DNA from: Elusimicrobiaceae bacterium
GTDB taxonomy: Bacteria > Elusimicrobiota > Elusimicrobia > Elusimicrobiales > Elusimicrobiaceae
DNA length: 64,000 nt
Assembly: GCA_016281355.1 (NCBI GenBank)
Contig: JAEEIL010000012.1
Coordinates: 1 to 64,000 of the forward strand
Direction: 5' to 3'
Position numbers and translations under genes: made by a program. Shown one piece after another: positions 1,279 through 60,786 of the stretch. The notes beneath the pieces are model-generated. The model made no database searches. It worked only from the letters and a program-made list of their open reading frames with translations, and was not told where the DNA came from. Each line of letters begins with the position of its first letter. The first letter of the stretch is position 1.

Positions 1279-1430
1279 TTTTTGCCGTCAAAGTCTTTTT
1301 GGTAAATTTTGATTTTTCTTTTCCTAGAGTACCGCAAACTCACTCCGTTCGTTTTACTTCTTGGTACATGTCGTCAAAGAAAAATCAAAATTTCCTCAAA
1401 AAATACTTGCCGGGTTTTGGTGTTCGGTTT
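1279..1430 (-). repeat. Copy A of a dispersed structured intergenic element
   Basis: Read on the minus strand, this stretch shares ordered blocks with 59168-59318: AAACCG, GCAAGTATTTT, CTTTGACGAC, TACC-N-AGAAGTA, GGTA-Y-TCTAGGAAAAGAAAAAT, AAAAGAC and GCAAAAA. A perfect 15-bp inverted repeat (1304-1318 with 1379-1393) closes an internal loop and an inner GTACC/GGTAC helix. It fills most of the 314-base gap between the hydrolase and the next gene. The short open frame across it is not convincing as a protein. Confidence 0.75.
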
Positions 1431-1518
1431 GATTTTATTAAATCTACTGTGCGATGCGCAAATATACTCGTGCGCTACGGTTTCATGCACTCAAATTATC
1501 AAATAAGATAAATTAATT

Positions 1519-1527
1519 TGTTATAAT
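1519..1527 (+). promoter_or_regulatory. Extended -10 promoter
   Basis: TGTTATAAT at 1519-1527, 31 bases before the ATG at 1558. No clear -35 is visible, which fits an extended -10 promoter. Confidence 0.5.
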
Positions 1528-1557
1528 ATTGCATGTAACAAACAGGAGGAATTTTTG

Positions 1558-2253
1558 ATGCTTTATATATTTTTGATCATATTATTGTTAGCAGGTATAT
1601 TTTACGGTATAATTTCTTTGTTACTGGAGGCGTCTTCCCCCGCTGAAAAACTAGTGAAGCAAAAAGGTCATATTACCAATGTGATATTAGATAAACCGGC
1701 CGGGGATATAACTTTACCGCTTGAATTGCAACAGTTTGAAATCTTTCATATTAAAGGTGATTATATAACTGATGTATTTACACAACTTTGCGATAATAAT
1801 ACCTTATATTCTTTCTTGCTGCATGGTAAAACCTTCCACACTAAAATTGGATTATCTAATCCTATACCGGGCGCGGGAATAGTTGGCGAAACAGAAATTC
1901 GGTGTTGGTTGGGTAAACTTCCTATCGATTTACCAAATGTAGAAATATTTTACCGCCATGCTCCTAATGATGTGTCGCCGTTTTGCAGTCAAAAAATATT
2001 TTTATGCGGAAATAAGGAATGGGATGAAAAATATGTATTTGCAGGTGATCCGAAATTTATATCTTTTCTATCTCCTTCGCTTATCTCTTGGATGGAGAAA
2101 AATCGCTTAAATATAATGATTTCTTCTGGGTGGATGTTATTACTAGATGTTAAAAAATTTGCTATTCCAAATGATAATCAAACATGGCAAAATCAAATGC
2201 AAGATATGTCTGCTTGGATATCTCTGCAAGATATTATATTGAAAAATAAATAA
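1558..2253 (+). CDS. Unknown single-pass membrane protein
   Basis: 231 residues. The first 25 residues form one hydrophobic segment with almost no charge (LYIFLIILLLAGIFYGIIS), and the rest is soluble and mixed alpha/beta in look. I recognise no family. The start is the ATG at 1558, seven bases after a strong AGGAGGA; a TTG one codon earlier would lie too close. The gene is monocistronic: its own extended -10 precedes it and a strong terminator follows. Cysteines occur in the middle third (CWLGK, FCSQ, LCGN), which may matter if the domain is exported. Function cannot be assigned. Confidence 0.7.
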   Translation: MLYIFLIILLLAGIFYGIISLLLEASSPAEKLVKQKGHITNVILDKPAGDITLPLELQQFEIFHIKGDYITDVFTQLCDNNTLYSFLLHGKTFHTKIGLSNPIPGAGIVGETEIRCWLGKLPIDLPNVEIFYRHAPNDVSPFCSQKIFLCGNKEWDEKYVFAGDPKFISFLSPSLISWMEKNRLNIMISSGWMLLLDVKKFAIPNDNQTWQNQMQDMSAWISLQDIILKNK

Positions 2254-49604: not shown

Positions 49605-49634
49605 AAATACCCCTACGTCCTAGGGGTATTTTTA
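49605..49634 (+). terminator. Intrinsic terminator after lon-mscL
   Basis: 11-bp stem AAATACCCCTA/TAGGGGTATTT with a 5-base loop and T-run. Confidence 0.92.
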
Positions 49635-49644
49635 TTTGTGAGTC

Positions 49645-49673
49645 TTGTTTTAATAAGAAGAAAGAGCTATAAT
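49645..49673 (+). promoter_or_regulatory. Promoter of the giant pilin gene
   Basis: TTGTTT (49645-49650), 17-base spacer, TATAAT (49668-49673), 52 bases before the ATG; GGAGAA precedes the start. Confidence 0.8.
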
Positions 49674-49724
49674 TTAAATATGTAATGTCGTAAAACAGTG
49701 ATTCAAATTACGGAGAATTAAAAC

Positions 49725-51488
49725 ATGAGAATAAATAAAAAAGGTTTTACACTGGTAGAAATATTAGTTGCAGTAGTGATTATCGGTGTACTTGCAACAA
49801 TTGCAGTTCCGATGTATCAAACTGCGGTAGACAAGAGCCGATATACAACAATGATAGTGCCTGCCAGAAATTTAGCTAGTGCCCAGGAAAGATACTTAAT
49901 GGAAAATGGTCGTTATAGTTCAGATTTAGCTATGTTAGATGTGCATTTCGGTAAAGATGTTAATGGACGTGTTGATAGTATATCATCCGGGCTTACAGCC
50001 AGCATAGGGGATGATTCCGAGTACGAGTATGTTAAAGTTAGTAAAGAAGGCATGAATAACAACTATATAATTTACTTGGATAAAAGTGAAAATTTTTCAA
50101 ATGAAATACATTGTGAAGCGTTAAAAGATAACACTAGAGCAGAACGCCTTTGCAAAGAATTAGGGGGGGAAAGGATTCACGGTAGTTTAACGGATGGATA
50201 CAATACTTATGTGTTGTCAGGAAAAGGCAAAGGTGTTTCATATAGCATACTTTCTTCCATGAATGGAATAGTATGTGAAGAAAGTGAAAATAGCGGGAAA
50301 AAATCATGTGAAGTAACCAAGGTAAACAATTCCGTAATAAAAACAGTTTGTTCTAACTCTGCTGACCCTAAAACTTGTAAGTATTATATTCATGATGAGG
50401 ATGCCAATACTTGGGAATGTGATGCTGCTAAAAGCAAGTTGGCAGGTGATACCTGTATTGCCACAGGAACCGGTACATATTTAAAAAGATGGGATGAAGA
50501 CGGAAATAGAATAGAAGGACAATGTGATAGTTATGATACCAGCAAAAATGCATGTTCCCAATTAGCCGAACGCACATACAATAAGAGTGATACTAAAATA
50601 GAGGCAGACCGTCGTTATTGTGCGGAATATGATTCCGATGGGCGATGCCTTTCTTATAAACAAAACCAAGGATATGATTCATTCGGTACACATAATTCTT
50701 CAAACGATAAAGCTTTAGGTGATCGCGGTCAAGCAGGATCAATGGATTATGCAAGTTCTACAACTTATTGGACGCAGTTAAATTGTGCAACAGTTAATGA
50801 CGAAGGGGTTTGTACTTCTTACAAAGACGGTTGGTTTGCTACCGACGAATGGAATGAAAATAAGAAAAATATTTTTCATGAAGTCATGAATTGCAGTTCT
50901 ATAACAGCTGATAAACAATGTGCCGAAGTCAGTTCTTACACAACAGCACAAGGACAGTATACCCCAAAGGGGCAATTGGAGTATATGTCTGTTCGTGAAT
51001 GTTTGGCAAAAGACAGTTCAGGTAATTGCACCCAGTATTCACGTAACAGTAATTCTAACTATCAAGAGGCATATACATACGACAGCAACAATAAAACTAC
51101 TTCTTACTCTAAATATAATTGCGCTTCTACGGAAAATGCTACAGAATGTACACAGTACAGTTCCAGTAAAAATACAAGTTATGTTTGGAACGGTTCAGCA
51201 AGTAAAGCACTATCGGAAATTACAGTTGGTTGCGGTAAATATGATGCAAACAATAACTGTACTCAGTATTCTTCGGAAACAAGTACTTACAGGACCTATG
51301 CTTCTAATAATACTACCCAAACATCTTTTACCACTGTTAAATGTAATAAATATACCGGTTTAGTTTGTACAGGCGGTTACAAGGTAGTTTATACACCTAT
51401 TGTAAACGGTAAAGATGATCTCGCTAATAGAGTAACTATTGATAATTGTAGCAATGTCGATATGACAAACGGTCAATGTTTGGACTAG
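49725..51488 (+). CDS. Very large type IV pilin-like protein with C-x(7-9)-C repeats
   Basis: 587 residues, three to four times a normal pilin. Leader MRINKKG is cut before F8; helix FTLVEILVAVVIIGVLATIAVP has E12 at +5, followed by a pilin-like core to about residue 170. From about residue 267 the chain is a repeat array of cysteine pairs: 267/277, 299/308, 354/363, 390/399, 426/435, 466/475, 503/512, 540/548 and 575/585. Later units are 35-40 residues long. The pair is often followed by T-Q-Y or T-S-Y, and the stretch between pairs is Ser/Thr/Asn/Tyr-rich. Each pair probably closes a small loop, giving a stiff stalk or adhesin. Monocistronic with its own promoter and terminator. Function inferred. 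Confidence 0.88.
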   Translation: MRINKKGFTLVEILVAVVIIGVLATIAVPMYQTAVDKSRYTTMIVPARNLASAQERYLMENGRYSSDLAMLDVHFGKDVNGRVDSISSGLTASIGDDSEYEYVKVSKEGMNNNYIIYLDKSENFSNEIHCEALKDNTRAERLCKELGGERIHGSLTDGYNTYVLSGKGKGVSYSILSSMNGIVCEESENSGKKSCEVTKVNNSVIKTVCSNSADPKTCKYYIHDEDANTWECDAAKSKLAGDTCIATGTGTYLKRWDEDGNRIEGQCDSYDTSKNACSQLAERTYNKSDTKIEADRRYCAEYDSDGRCLSYKQNQGYDSFGTHNSSNDKALGDRGQAGSMDYASSTTYWTQLNCATVNDEGVCTSYKDGWFATDEWNENKKNIFHEVMNCSSITADKQCAEVSSYTTAQGQYTPKGQLEYMSVRECLAKDSSGNCTQYSRNSNSNYQEAYTYDSNNKTTSYSKYNCASTENATECTQYSSSKNTSYVWNGSASKALSEITVGCGKYDANNNCTQYSSETSTYRTYASNNTTQTSFTTVKCNKYTGLVCTGGYKVVYTPIVNGKDDLANRVTIDNCSNVDMTNGQCLD

Positions 51489-51514
51489 TATAATAATATA
51501 AATTCAAGATATTT

Positions 51515-51556
51515 GAAAAAGGAACTCTTCTCCTGTCACAAGAAGAGTTCTTTTTC
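51515..51556 (+). terminator. Intrinsic terminator after the giant pilin
   Basis: GAAAAAGGAACTCTTCT paired with AGAAGAGTTCTTTTTC around a 9-base loop, a near-perfect 16-bp stem with T-run in its 3' arm. Confidence 0.92.
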
Positions 51557-51602
51557 ATGTACAGTTATATTGGCTAAAATATGATACTAAAATTAAAATA
51601 CA

Positions 51603-51622
51603 AAAAATGCATTTGCATTTTT
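51603..51622. promoter_or_regulatory. Palindrome over a -35 box, candidate operator
   Basis: AAAAATGCA/TGCATTTTT with a two-base centre, a perfect 9-bp palindrome. It contains the TTGCAT -35 of the following promoter, so a protein bound here would block RNA polymerase. Confidence 0.55.
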
Positions 51623-58408: not shown

Positions 58409-58873
58409 ATGCCGGAAAATATTCAAATACAAATCAAAGAAGAAATAGAAGAGTTTACTAAACTAATAAAAAAATACCCGGATATATCAGATTTATATAT
58501 CGGCAGGGCTGTTTTGTATGCAAAAATCGGGGAATATGAAAAAGCCGTAAAAGATTATGAGGCTGCACATGAAGATTATATTTATGATATTGTTGCCGTA
58601 TGCCTAAGGCATAATTTAATCCGGGAAATTGAAAGGTTCTATACACAAAAGATAAATAAAGACAAAAACAATATCTTAAATTATATGAGCATGGCGCGTT
58701 TTTACAGGGCTATCGGTGAAAATCAAAAAGCACTTACCGATTGTGAGAGTATTTTAAAAATATCACCAAGTAATAAATTTATTTTAGAAATGAAACAGGC
58801 AATAATTAAAGAATTAAAAGAACAAGGCAAATATAGCAAACAAATGAAAAGCCAAAAGATATTTTTGACATAA
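58409..58873 (+). CDS. Small TPR-repeat protein
   Basis: 154 residues, soluble and all-helical. Two or three TPR motifs can be read: DLYIGRAVLYAKIGEYEKAVKDYEAA (about 31-56) and NYMSMARFYRAIGENQKALTDCESILKISPSN (about 92-123), with the usual A/G and Y positions. TPR proteins bind other proteins; no catalytic part is present. No signal peptide, so it acts in the cytoplasm. GTGAGG lies eight bases before the ATG. A complex leader precedes it and a palindrome-rich non-coding region follows. Partner unknown. Confidence 0.82.
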   Translation: MPENIQIQIKEEIEEFTKLIKKYPDISDLYIGRAVLYAKIGEYEKAVKDYEAAHEDYIYDIVAVCLRHNLIREIERFYTQKINKDKNNILNYMSMARFYRAIGENQKALTDCESILKISPSNKFILEMKQAIIKELKEQGKYSKQMKSQKIFLT

Positions 58874-58881
58874 ATAAAACC

Positions 58882-58912
58882 AAACCGTATACGCAAATCT
58901 AGTAAGTATTTT
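58882..58912 (+). repeat. Partial copy B of the dispersed element (5' block only)
   Basis: AAACCG-N7-AAAYCTAG-YAAGTATTTT, the same 5' block as in the copies at 59168 and 1430 (minus). The CTTTGACGAC and TCTAGGAAAAG parts do not follow; a different GC-rich hairpin does. Confidence 0.6.
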
Positions 58913-58917
58913 TTATT

Positions 58918-59160
58918 GTCGCCACCCACGTGCTTTGTCACGCGGGCGGGAGACGACTGAGCAAACGTAGTTTGCTCGTCAAGAGGGGGGTATAAATAAG
59001 GTAATCTTTGATTTCACAGATAACCCCCACCCGTCAAGCAAAAATAAATTTTTGCTTGCCACCCTCCGCCCTTTCTTATTTTTGCTGACGCAAAAATAAA
59101 ACGACAAAGGGTGAGGAAAATAAGAGGAAGAAATTTTGATTTTATCTGCGACAGATAAAA
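58918..59160. repeat. Cluster of five palindromes between TPR and glmU genes
   Basis: Within about 240 non-coding bases I see five hairpins: 58918-58957 (GTCGCC-x-CCCACGTG region, imperfect), 58959-58977 (GAGCAAAC/GTTTGCTC, perfect), 59036-59057 (AAGCAAAAAT/ATTTTTGCTT, perfect), 59076-59099 (TTATTTTTGC/GCAAAAATAA, perfect) and 59140-59160 (TTTTATCTG/CAGATAAAA, perfect). CCGCCCTTT and AAAGGGTGAGG flank the fourth and can extend it. No open frame here looks coding. Confidence 0.7.
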
Positions 59161-59167
59161 CAAAGAC

Positions 59168-59318
59168 AAACCGAGTGCACAAACCTAGCAAGTATTTTGG
59201 TGATAATTTAAATTTTATCTTTGACGACGAATACCCAGAAGTATAGGAGCGAAGCGATTTTTGGTATTCTAGGAAAAGAAAAATTTAAATTAGCCCAAAA
59301 GACGCCGCTAGCAAAAAA
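59168..59318 (+). repeat. Copy C of the dispersed structured element
   Basis: Blocks in order: AAACCG (59168), GCAAGTATTTT (59188), CTTTGACGAC (59219), TACCCAGAAGTA (59232), GGTATTCTAGGAAAAG (59263), CAAAAGAC (59296) and GCAAAAAA (59311). A 12-bp arm AATTTAAATTTT (59205-59216) pairs with 59280-59291, and an inner helix GAATACC/GGTATTC (59229-59235 with 59263-59269) closes a 27-base loop. The same order and folding are found on the minus strand at 1279-1430. Confidence 0.8.
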
Positions 59319-59362
59319 TGTCAATTGCAAAACATTCCTATTTTAAAATTCGCATTAAAATT

Positions 59363-59371
59363 TGGTATAAT
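59363..59371 (+). promoter_or_regulatory. Extended -10 promoter of glmU-prs-rplY
   Basis: TGGTATAAT at 59363-59371, 32 bases before the ATG at 59404. Confidence 0.6.
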
Positions 59372-59403: not shown

Positions 59404-60786
59404 ATGGTAGCCAACTTATCAGTCCTAGTCCTTGCAGGCGGCAAGGGCACGCGCATGAAATCCGCCACACCTAAACCATTACATAAAATTTTCGGTTTGC
59501 CGCTTTTGGCACACATTTTACAAACTGCAGATGCGCTTAAACCGTCTGCTAATGTCGTTTTATGCGGCCATCAGGCTGATATTTTAGAAAAAACCGTCAA
59601 AGAAAATTATAAAAATTGGGGTATTAAAGCAGATTTAAAATTTGCTCTGCAAAAAGTTTTAAACGGCAGCGGTTCAGCTGTAAAATATGCAATGCCGGCA
59701 CTAAAAAAATATAAACAAGTTTTAATTTTAGCCGGCGACGCCCCCTTAATTGAGGCCGACACCTTAAAACAACTTGTCAAACACCATAACAATAAAAAAG
59801 CCTCTTGCACCGTCTTAACCGTTGAAGTTCCAACCCCCAAAGGTTATGGCCGCATTGTTAAAGAAAATAATATCATAAAAATTGTTGAAGAAAGCGAAAC
59901 CGATTCTAAAACCGCACCGATAAAAGAAGTAAATTCCGGCATGTACATTTTTGAAATTAAAGACCTTGAAAAGGTTTTAAAACTTTTAAAACCTCAAGGC
60001 CCAAAGCAAGAATATTATTTAACCGATACTTTGGCTTTGCTCCAAAAACAAGGCAAGAAAGTGGAAATTTTTAAAGCCGCAGATTATAAAGAGGCCATGG
60101 GCATAAATTCCAAAAAGCAGCTTGCCGAGGCCGCACAAGCAATGCGCGAAAAAATCAATAATAAATTAATGGATGCGGGCGTAATTTTAATTGATCCGCA
60201 AAATACTTATGTTGATAAAACCGTCAAAATAGGGGCAGACACGGTAATCTATCCAAACTGCTATATTTACGGTAAAACGGTTATTGGGGAAAATTGTAAA
60301 ATCGGCCCAAATTGCTGGATAGAAAATTCAAAATTTGAAAATAATGTTGATGTCAAAATGTCTTGCTACATTTTGGACAGTTATTTAAAAGAAGGTGCGC
60401 AAACAGAACCTTTTGCCAAACTCCGCCCTCAAACGGTGGTGGGTAGTATTGCCAAAATCGGCAGTTTTGTGGAAATTAAAAAGTCCACAATCGGCAAAGG
60501 TTCAAAGGTGCCGCACCTTTCGTATATAGGGGATACGGTTATGGGCGCAAATGTCAATATCGGTGCCGGCGCAATAACCTGTAATTACGACGGTAAAAAT
60601 AAACATCAAACTATTATAGGGGATGATGTCTTCGTCGGTTCAAACACAAATTTTGTTGCACCTGTTAAAGTTGGCGCGGGCGCGAAAATCGGTGCTGGTT
60701 CAACGATAACAGAAGATATACCTGCCAAAACTTTGGCAATAGCCAGGGCAAGGCAAGTTAATCTCAAAAACAAAAAAGGAAAATAA
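59404..60786 (+). CDS. glmU: Bifunctional GlcNAc-1-phosphate uridyltransferase/glucosamine-1-phosphate acetyltransferase
   Basis: 460 residues. The N-terminal uridyltransferase domain (about 1-230) has VLAGGKGTRMKSATPKPLHKI, GDAPLI and EVNSGMYIF. The C-terminal left-handed beta helix (about 250-460) has hexapeptide repeats (VIYPNCYIYGKTVIGENCKIGPNC) and the acetyltransferase site (KLRPQTVVG...EIKKSTIGKGSKVPHLSYIGD...NYDGKNKHQT). It makes UDP-GlcNAc for peptidoglycan and LPS. The start at 59404 follows AAGGAGA; an in-frame ATG at 59374 overlaps the promoter. First gene of glmU-prs-rplY. Confidence 0.97.
   Translation: MVANLSVLVLAGGKGTRMKSATPKPLHKIFGLPLLAHILQTADALKPSANVVLCGHQADILEKTVKENYKNWGIKADLKFALQKVLNGSGSAVKYAMPALKKYKQVLILAGDAPLIEADTLKQLVKHHNNKKASCTVLTVEVPTPKGYGRIVKENNIIKIVEESETDSKTAPIKEVNSGMYIFEIKDLEKVLKLLKPQGPKQEYYLTDTLALLQKQGKKVEIFKAADYKEAMGINSKKQLAEAAQAMREKINNKLMDAGVILIDPQNTYVDKTVKIGADTVIYPNCYIYGKTVIGENCKIGPNCWIENSKFENNVDVKMSCYILDSYLKEGAQTEPFAKLRPQTVVGSIAKIGSFVEIKKSTIGKGSKVPHLSYIGDTVMGANVNIGAGAITCNYDGKNKHQTIIGDDVFVGSNTNFVAPVKVGAGAKIGAGSTITEDIPAKTLAIARARQVNLKNKKGK

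What the first reader, a model, noticed from the sequence alone, without database searches (positions are those of the whole stretch)
59168..59318. Dispersed structured element with covarying arms (copy C)
Seven short blocks recur in the same order here and on the minus strand at 1279-1430, 58 kb away. The arms differ in sequence but remain complementary: AATTTAAATTTT/AAAATTTAAATT here, AAATTTTGATTTTTC and its complement there. The inner helix changes from A-T to G-C next to a constant TACC/GGTA. Between the helices the unpaired CTTTGACGAC and TCTAGGAAAAG are unchanged. Constant loops with changing arms suggest selection on a folded RNA or a protein-bound DNA hairpin, not simple duplication. 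I match it to no named RNA family.
Basis: partly seen in the sequence, partly recalled or inferred. Interest (0 to 1): 0.8.

Follow-up and report, generated by a model that had tools for sequence, protein, structure and literature searches.

The report
Mobile DNA-hairpin repeat marking gene swaps
This is one copy of an apparently undescribed family of dispersed, hairpin-forming repeats in Elusimicrobium-type gut bacteria; the copies keep a strict folded shape and constant loop, come and go between species, and sit where neighbouring accessory genes are exchanged, so they look like mobile recombination sites rather than an RNA gene.

Summary
The element at 59168-59318 is one of about 14 good copies in its own 1.5 Mb genome and belongs to a family found in 29 of 341 genomes of its phylum (close relatives are named Elusimicrobium/Elusimicrobiaceae MAGs). 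Copies share a long A+T helix, a constant purine internal loop (GACGA/TAGGA) and an apical GAGC-GNA-GCGA hairpin. Covariation is strong: 14 of 38 pairs changed on both sides in 11 copies (0/500 shuffles), 29 of 38 across subfamilies. Rfam has no match. G-U pairs are scarce and hardly commoner than A-C (26 vs 21 of 1425 cells), many copies lie between divergent genes, and orthologous sites without the element exist; this favours a mobile DNA hairpin over an RNA. Copies adjoin the same core genes in different species while the upstream accessory gene differs (12 of 14 pairs), and 18 of 61 units follow a left half-copy, mostly ending at the GACGA loop. Best reading: a non-autonomous DNA-hairpin element cut in trans at that loop, working like an integron attC or REP site but lacking their defining features. 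The enzyme is unknown.

The parts
59155..59344 (+). complete A-type unit (copy C): left end, hairpin, right end
   Evidence: flank consensus of 42 copies; empty sites
59155..59173 (+). conserved left end ATAAAACAAAGACAAACCG (family consensus ATAAAGCCAAACCG)
59185..59311 (+). hairpin core; outer stem CTAGC 59185-59189 with GCTAG 59307-59311
59201..59222 (+). left long A+T arm, pairs with 59275-59292
59275..59292 (+). right long A+T arm
59223..59228 (+). constant internal loop, 5' side GACGAC; point where upstream half-copies end
59270..59274 (+). constant internal loop, 3' side TAGGA
59230..59268 (+). inner stem AATACC/GGTATT with its apical part
59247..59257 (+). apical hairpin GAGCGAAGCGA (GNA loop flanked by GA/GA)
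   Evidence: N free, neighbouring pair G-C or A-T
59313..59344 (+). conserved right end (family consensus AAAA..TGCAAATTTCCTATTT)
59129..59153 (+). remnant of a left half-copy ending in the GACGA motif (GCGACA here), immediately before the unit
   Evidence: score 21, control maximum 10.5, ends at GACGA+3
58874..58913 (+). truncated left end of another copy, directly after the stop codon of the TPR gene
   Evidence: the G002 relative of that gene is followed by a full unit (L119)
58409..58873 (+). accessory TPR-like gene upstream of copy C; sits at another locus in G002 with its own element
   Evidence: TPR domain of the G002 relative
59404..60786 (+). downstream core gene (glmU-like), promoter-like site 59342-59371
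   Evidence: gene name from reading the translation, not tested
1281..1414 (-). second copy in the window (hairpin core)
1555..2253 (+). accessory 232-aa gene next to the second copy; gene and element both absent from the orthologous G002 site

Best explanation
The element is a non-autonomous mobile DNA hairpin. In single-stranded form (replication, DNA uptake) the top strand folds into a long A+T stem interrupted by a purine internal loop (GACGA/TAGGA, likely sheared G-A pairs) and capped by a GNA hairpin. An enzyme acting in trans recognises this shape and cuts or joins at the GACGA side of the loop. New units and accessory genes are thereby joined at existing copies, so copies end up as recurrent junctions between a fixed core gene and an exchangeable accessory gene. 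Shown: the family, the fold, covariation, the constant loop, element-free sites, breakpoints clustered at GACGA, different upstream genes at the same site. Inferred: single-stranded DNA as the active form, enzymatic cutting at GACGA, the unit as a recombination site. Unknown: the enzyme.
For: Copies dispersed and variable between species: with model R1 four same-genus relatives (G001, G005, G008, G011) have none. Element-only differences at orthologous sites: L008, L009, L010, L011 versus G002; gene plus element missing: L013, L014 versus G002, L004 versus G014. At the L009 site G002 lacks exactly the hairpin while both conserved ends remain. 14 cross-species pairs share the downstream gene at 82-97% identity; upstream DNA is unrelated in 12, against roughly 4 of ~44 other gene junctions in the window versus G002 (rough count). 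Members of one TPR gene family carry an element about 20 bp after the stop codon at several unrelated loci. 18 of 61 units are preceded by a left half-copy, at least 13 ending at GACGA +3 to +8. At the rnpA-like site G004 carries the left half of the G000 element type, ending at GACGAC, followed by a different full unit; G002 has only that second unit. 94% of cells pair with 271 two-sided changes but few G-U and nearly as many A-C. The top strand folds better than the bottom in 94 of 110 copies.
Against: No enzyme found: Y1 transposase absent from G000, G002, G003, G014; only XerC/XerD-like tyrosine recombinases shared; reverse transcriptase and IS110 not correlated. No target-site duplication seen. 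At the half-full junctions the old right half is missing, which no simple insertion explains. Gene differences between species also occur without an element (e.g. window 36.3-37.9 kb, 49.6-51.6 kb). Several insertions carry no gene.
Confidence: 0.5

Rival explanations
1. Plain MITE/REP-like palindromic repeat: a selfish non-coding element spread by an ordinary transposase (perhaps now lost); its association with variable genes only reflects that both tolerate the same non-essential sites.
For: Multi-copy, intergenic, non-coding, presence/absence; element-only insertions (L008-L011); nested copies; several subfamilies and a second unrelated repeat beside copy C.
Against: No inverted-repeat ends plus target duplication in A units; outer arms vary freely while remaining complementary, unlike transposase-bound ends; half-copies end at one loop position; same site, different gene in 12 of 14 pairs.
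Confidence: 0.25
2. Homologous-recombination islands: repeats without their own mobility that give homology for exchange of accessory genes after natural transformation; arms kept complementary by hairpin-templated replication errors.
For: Same downstream gene and element, different upstream gene; no dedicated enzyme found; the element type also switches at one site (A in G000, B in G002 or G014).
Against: Element-only gains at otherwise collinear sites; fixed breakpoint at GACGA; a constant non-complementary loop would be erased by palindrome correction unless selected.
Confidence: 0.13
3. Structured RNA: a small RNA or mRNA-end element (3' UTR stabiliser, regulatory RNA), selected for its fold and loop.
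For: Strong covariation and constant loops; top strand folds better than bottom; some copies lie just after a stop codon or between closely spaced co-oriented genes.
Against: G-U about 2% of cells and not clearly in excess over A-C; about a third of copies between divergent genes; no promoter-like site before copy C; no Rfam match; absent from several close relatives at otherwise collinear sites.
Confidence: 0.12

Closest known systems
Integron attC sites and gene cassettes
   Same: Structure conserved rather than sequence, constant unpaired bases in a hairpin, variable apical part, site next to the stop codon of an accessory gene, different genes at one site
   Different: No RYYYAAC/GTTRRRY boxes, no tyrosine recombinase beyond the XerC/XerD type that tracks the elements, dispersed single sites rather than arrays, about 25-bp A+T stem
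REP/BIME sequences with RAYT transposases
   Same: Dispersed intergenic hairpins, sometimes in inverted pairs, probable single-strand recognition
   Different: Much longer; no Y1 transposase in four element-rich genomes
Palindromic intergenic MITEs such as Correia/NEMIS or ERIC
   Same: 100-200 bp palindromic intergenic repeats with presence/absence variation
   Different: No transposase-type ends with target duplication in A units; constant purine loop; arms covary
Rickettsia palindromic elements
   Same: Palindromic repeats with many divergent subfamilies
   Different: Here intergenic, not inserted in frame within genes in the copies examined

Membership tests
Integron attC | RYYYAAC and GTTRRRY boxes at the hairpin base | tested here: not met
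   0 of 42 copies with both on either strand, no more than in shuffled flanks
Integron attC | IntI-type integrase in trans | tested here: not met
   G020, G010 and G023 carry only two PF00589 proteins yet many elements; an integrase in missing genome parts or elsewhere is not excluded
Integron attC | ssDNA hairpin recognised by structure with constant unpaired bases | tested here: inconclusive
   fold and constant loop shown; recognition cannot be tested here
Integron gene cassette | site abuts the end of an exchangeable gene | tested here: inconclusive
   met for many copies, not for element-only insertions
REP/RAYT | Y1 (PF01797) transposase in the genome | tested here: not met
IS200/IS605-derived element | Y1 transposase partner | tested here: not met
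IS110 bridge RNA | DEDD IS110 transposase | tested here: not met
   none over the cut-off
Retron ncRNA / group II intron / DGR | reverse transcriptase in element-bearing genomes | tested here: not met
   present in three of nine element-bearing genomes searched, absent from G020 and G294
MITE | non-coding, multi-copy, presence/absence | tested here: met
MITE | terminal inverted repeats with target duplication and a parent transposase | tested here: inconclusive
   none seen in A units; only four protein families were searched
Known RNA family (Rfam 15) | match above gathering score | tested here: not met

The most novel reading that the evidence does not exclude
An integron-like gene-exchange system without an integron integrase: dispersed single-stranded DNA hairpins in Elusimicrobiota act as site-specific junctions, cut at the GACGA side of a purine internal loop, through which pilin-like, TPR, ankyrin and other accessory genes are swapped next to core genes.
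Probability: 0.25. Interest if true: 0.85.

Novelty: new variant of a known kind. Interest (0 to 1): 0.62.

Why it matters
If these hairpins are recombination sites, part of a phylum of gut bacteria has a gene-shuffling route that integron and transposon annotation misses. Even as a selfish repeat it is an unusually clean case of a palindrome whose arms change freely while a non-complementary loop is held constant, useful for separating selection on DNA structure from RNA structure (the G-U versus A-C test).

Tried and rejected
RAYT/IS605 partner, integron-type or other dedicated tyrosine recombinase, reverse transcriptase, IS110: none tracks the elements. attC boxes not found. Rfam at gathering score and at relaxed E-value: chance hits only. 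No copies in viral, phage or plasmid collections. Literature on Elusimicrobi-/Endomicrobi- palindromic repeats: nothing relevant in the library searched. G-U excess on one strand was tried as a strand test: weak on A copies (29 vs 15), nearly balanced on the wider set (26 vs 21), so not used to choose a strand. The idea that the upstream halves are an RNA switch was dropped, since they do not match the downstream right arm (reading).

Full report
What is there. The finding at 59168-59318 is copy C of a ~200 bp unit. The hairpin core runs from an outer stem (CTAGC/GCTAG here, other complementary pairs in other copies) through a T-run/A-run and a long A+T helix, to a constant internal loop (5' GACGA(C), 3' TAGGA), an inner stem (RTACC/GGTAY) and an apical GAGC-GNA-GCGA hairpin in which N is free. 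Flanks conserved in 42 copies give a left end ATAAAGCCAAACCG and a right end TGCAAATTTCCTATTT. The own genome holds 14 strong copies and two of a diverged subtype.

Covariation. On 11 copies 95.9% of cells pair, 14 of 38 pairs have two-sided changes, 0 of 500 shuffles reach the covariation score, and sliding the partners by one column drops pairing to 55-63%. On 39 copies from several genera and a second family 94.4% pair, with 271 two-sided changes in 29 pairs, against a shuffle maximum of 92 changes in 24 pairs (that alignment was fitted to the model, so it leans to the structure).

DNA or RNA. G-U cells are 26 and A-C cells 21 of 1425; in A copies 29 and 15 of about 1511. From general knowledge structured RNAs carry clearly more G-U. 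This scarcity suggests arms kept in strict Watson-Crick register, as a DNA hairpin under selection or hairpin-templated repair would do. The loop is not complementary and yet does not get corrected, so it is probably selected. The purine loop exists on one strand only, and that strand folds better in 94 of 110 copies by nearest-neighbour RNA energies, so the active form is probably single-stranded with fixed polarity; part of that energy difference comes from the loops themselves.

Mobility. Orthologous sites without the element: L008, L009, L010 and L011 versus G002 (element alone); L013 and L014 versus G002 and L004 versus G014 (gene and element both missing). At the L009 site G002 keeps both unit ends and lacks only the hairpin, consistent with precise loss between short repeats at its base. 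Names given to neighbouring core genes (glmU, dnaJ, ppdK, rnpA, cdsA) come from reading the translations and were not tested.

Gene exchange. At the glmU-like site the species differ: TPR gene plus A unit (G000), another gene plus B unit (G002), another gene and no unit (G014), no element in G007, G001, G008 and G011. Across 61 copies, 14 cross-species pairs share the downstream gene and 12 of them have unrelated upstream DNA. Upstream genes by Pfam: seven of 20 examined carry the N-methyl pilin motif; others have TPR, ankyrin, subtilase or His-phosphatase domains, and several are unknown. Gene differences without elements also occur, so the link is an enrichment and the background count is rough.

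Breakpoint. In 18 of 61 units a left half-copy lies directly upstream, scoring above shuffled controls, and in at least 13 its similarity ends 3 to 8 bases after the start of GACGA. The sequence that follows is the left end of the next unit. The missing right halves are not explained.

Distribution. Model R1 finds the family in 29 of 341 genomes of the phylum, in family f1 and in f21. In f21 and genus g2 the same core (TTTTTGAGGAAATTTT.../...AAAATTTACCAAAAAG with GACG/AGGA) is enclosed in a further inverted repeat of about 30 bp that differs between copies yet stays complementary, with a CCC-GAA-GGG hairpin beside it. The named records are Elusimicrobium/Elusimicrobiaceae MAGs, at least one from water buffalo rumen; one isolated match in a Saprospiraceae MAG is probably chance.

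Verdict. Real, widespread in its phylum, absent from Rfam and from the literature searched; most likely a non-autonomous mobile DNA hairpin that marks, and possibly mediates, accessory-gene exchange. It works like an attC or REP site but fails the tested defining features of both.

Noticed in passing
window 59062-59136: A different short repeat lies between the TPR gene and copy C; some 15 places in G014 match it at 87-88% identity, nearly all with identical scores.
   Followed up: no
window 49615-51612: A 587-aa gene (49725-51488) is absent from the collinear G002 site (69 bp there) with no element nearby.
   Followed up: no
L014 (1477-1609), L045 (1702-1833), L113 (3624-3755), L010 (1473-1600): B-type units share the core loop with A units but have different outer arms and extra GC-rich side hairpins; L010 is an A-left/B-right hybrid.
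   Followed up: partly
L045, L063, L065: Pairs of elements in inverted orientation about 70-170 bp apart, recalling BIMEs.
   Followed up: no
L260, L262: In G116 the outer inverted repeat starts on the stop codon of the upstream reading frame and ends a few bases before the likely ribosome-binding site of the next gene.
   Followed up: partly
L072, upstream of 1501-1632 (minus strand): Tandem left halves, each ending in GACGAC and followed by (A/G)TAAAA...AAAGCCAAACC, precede a full unit.
   Followed up: partly
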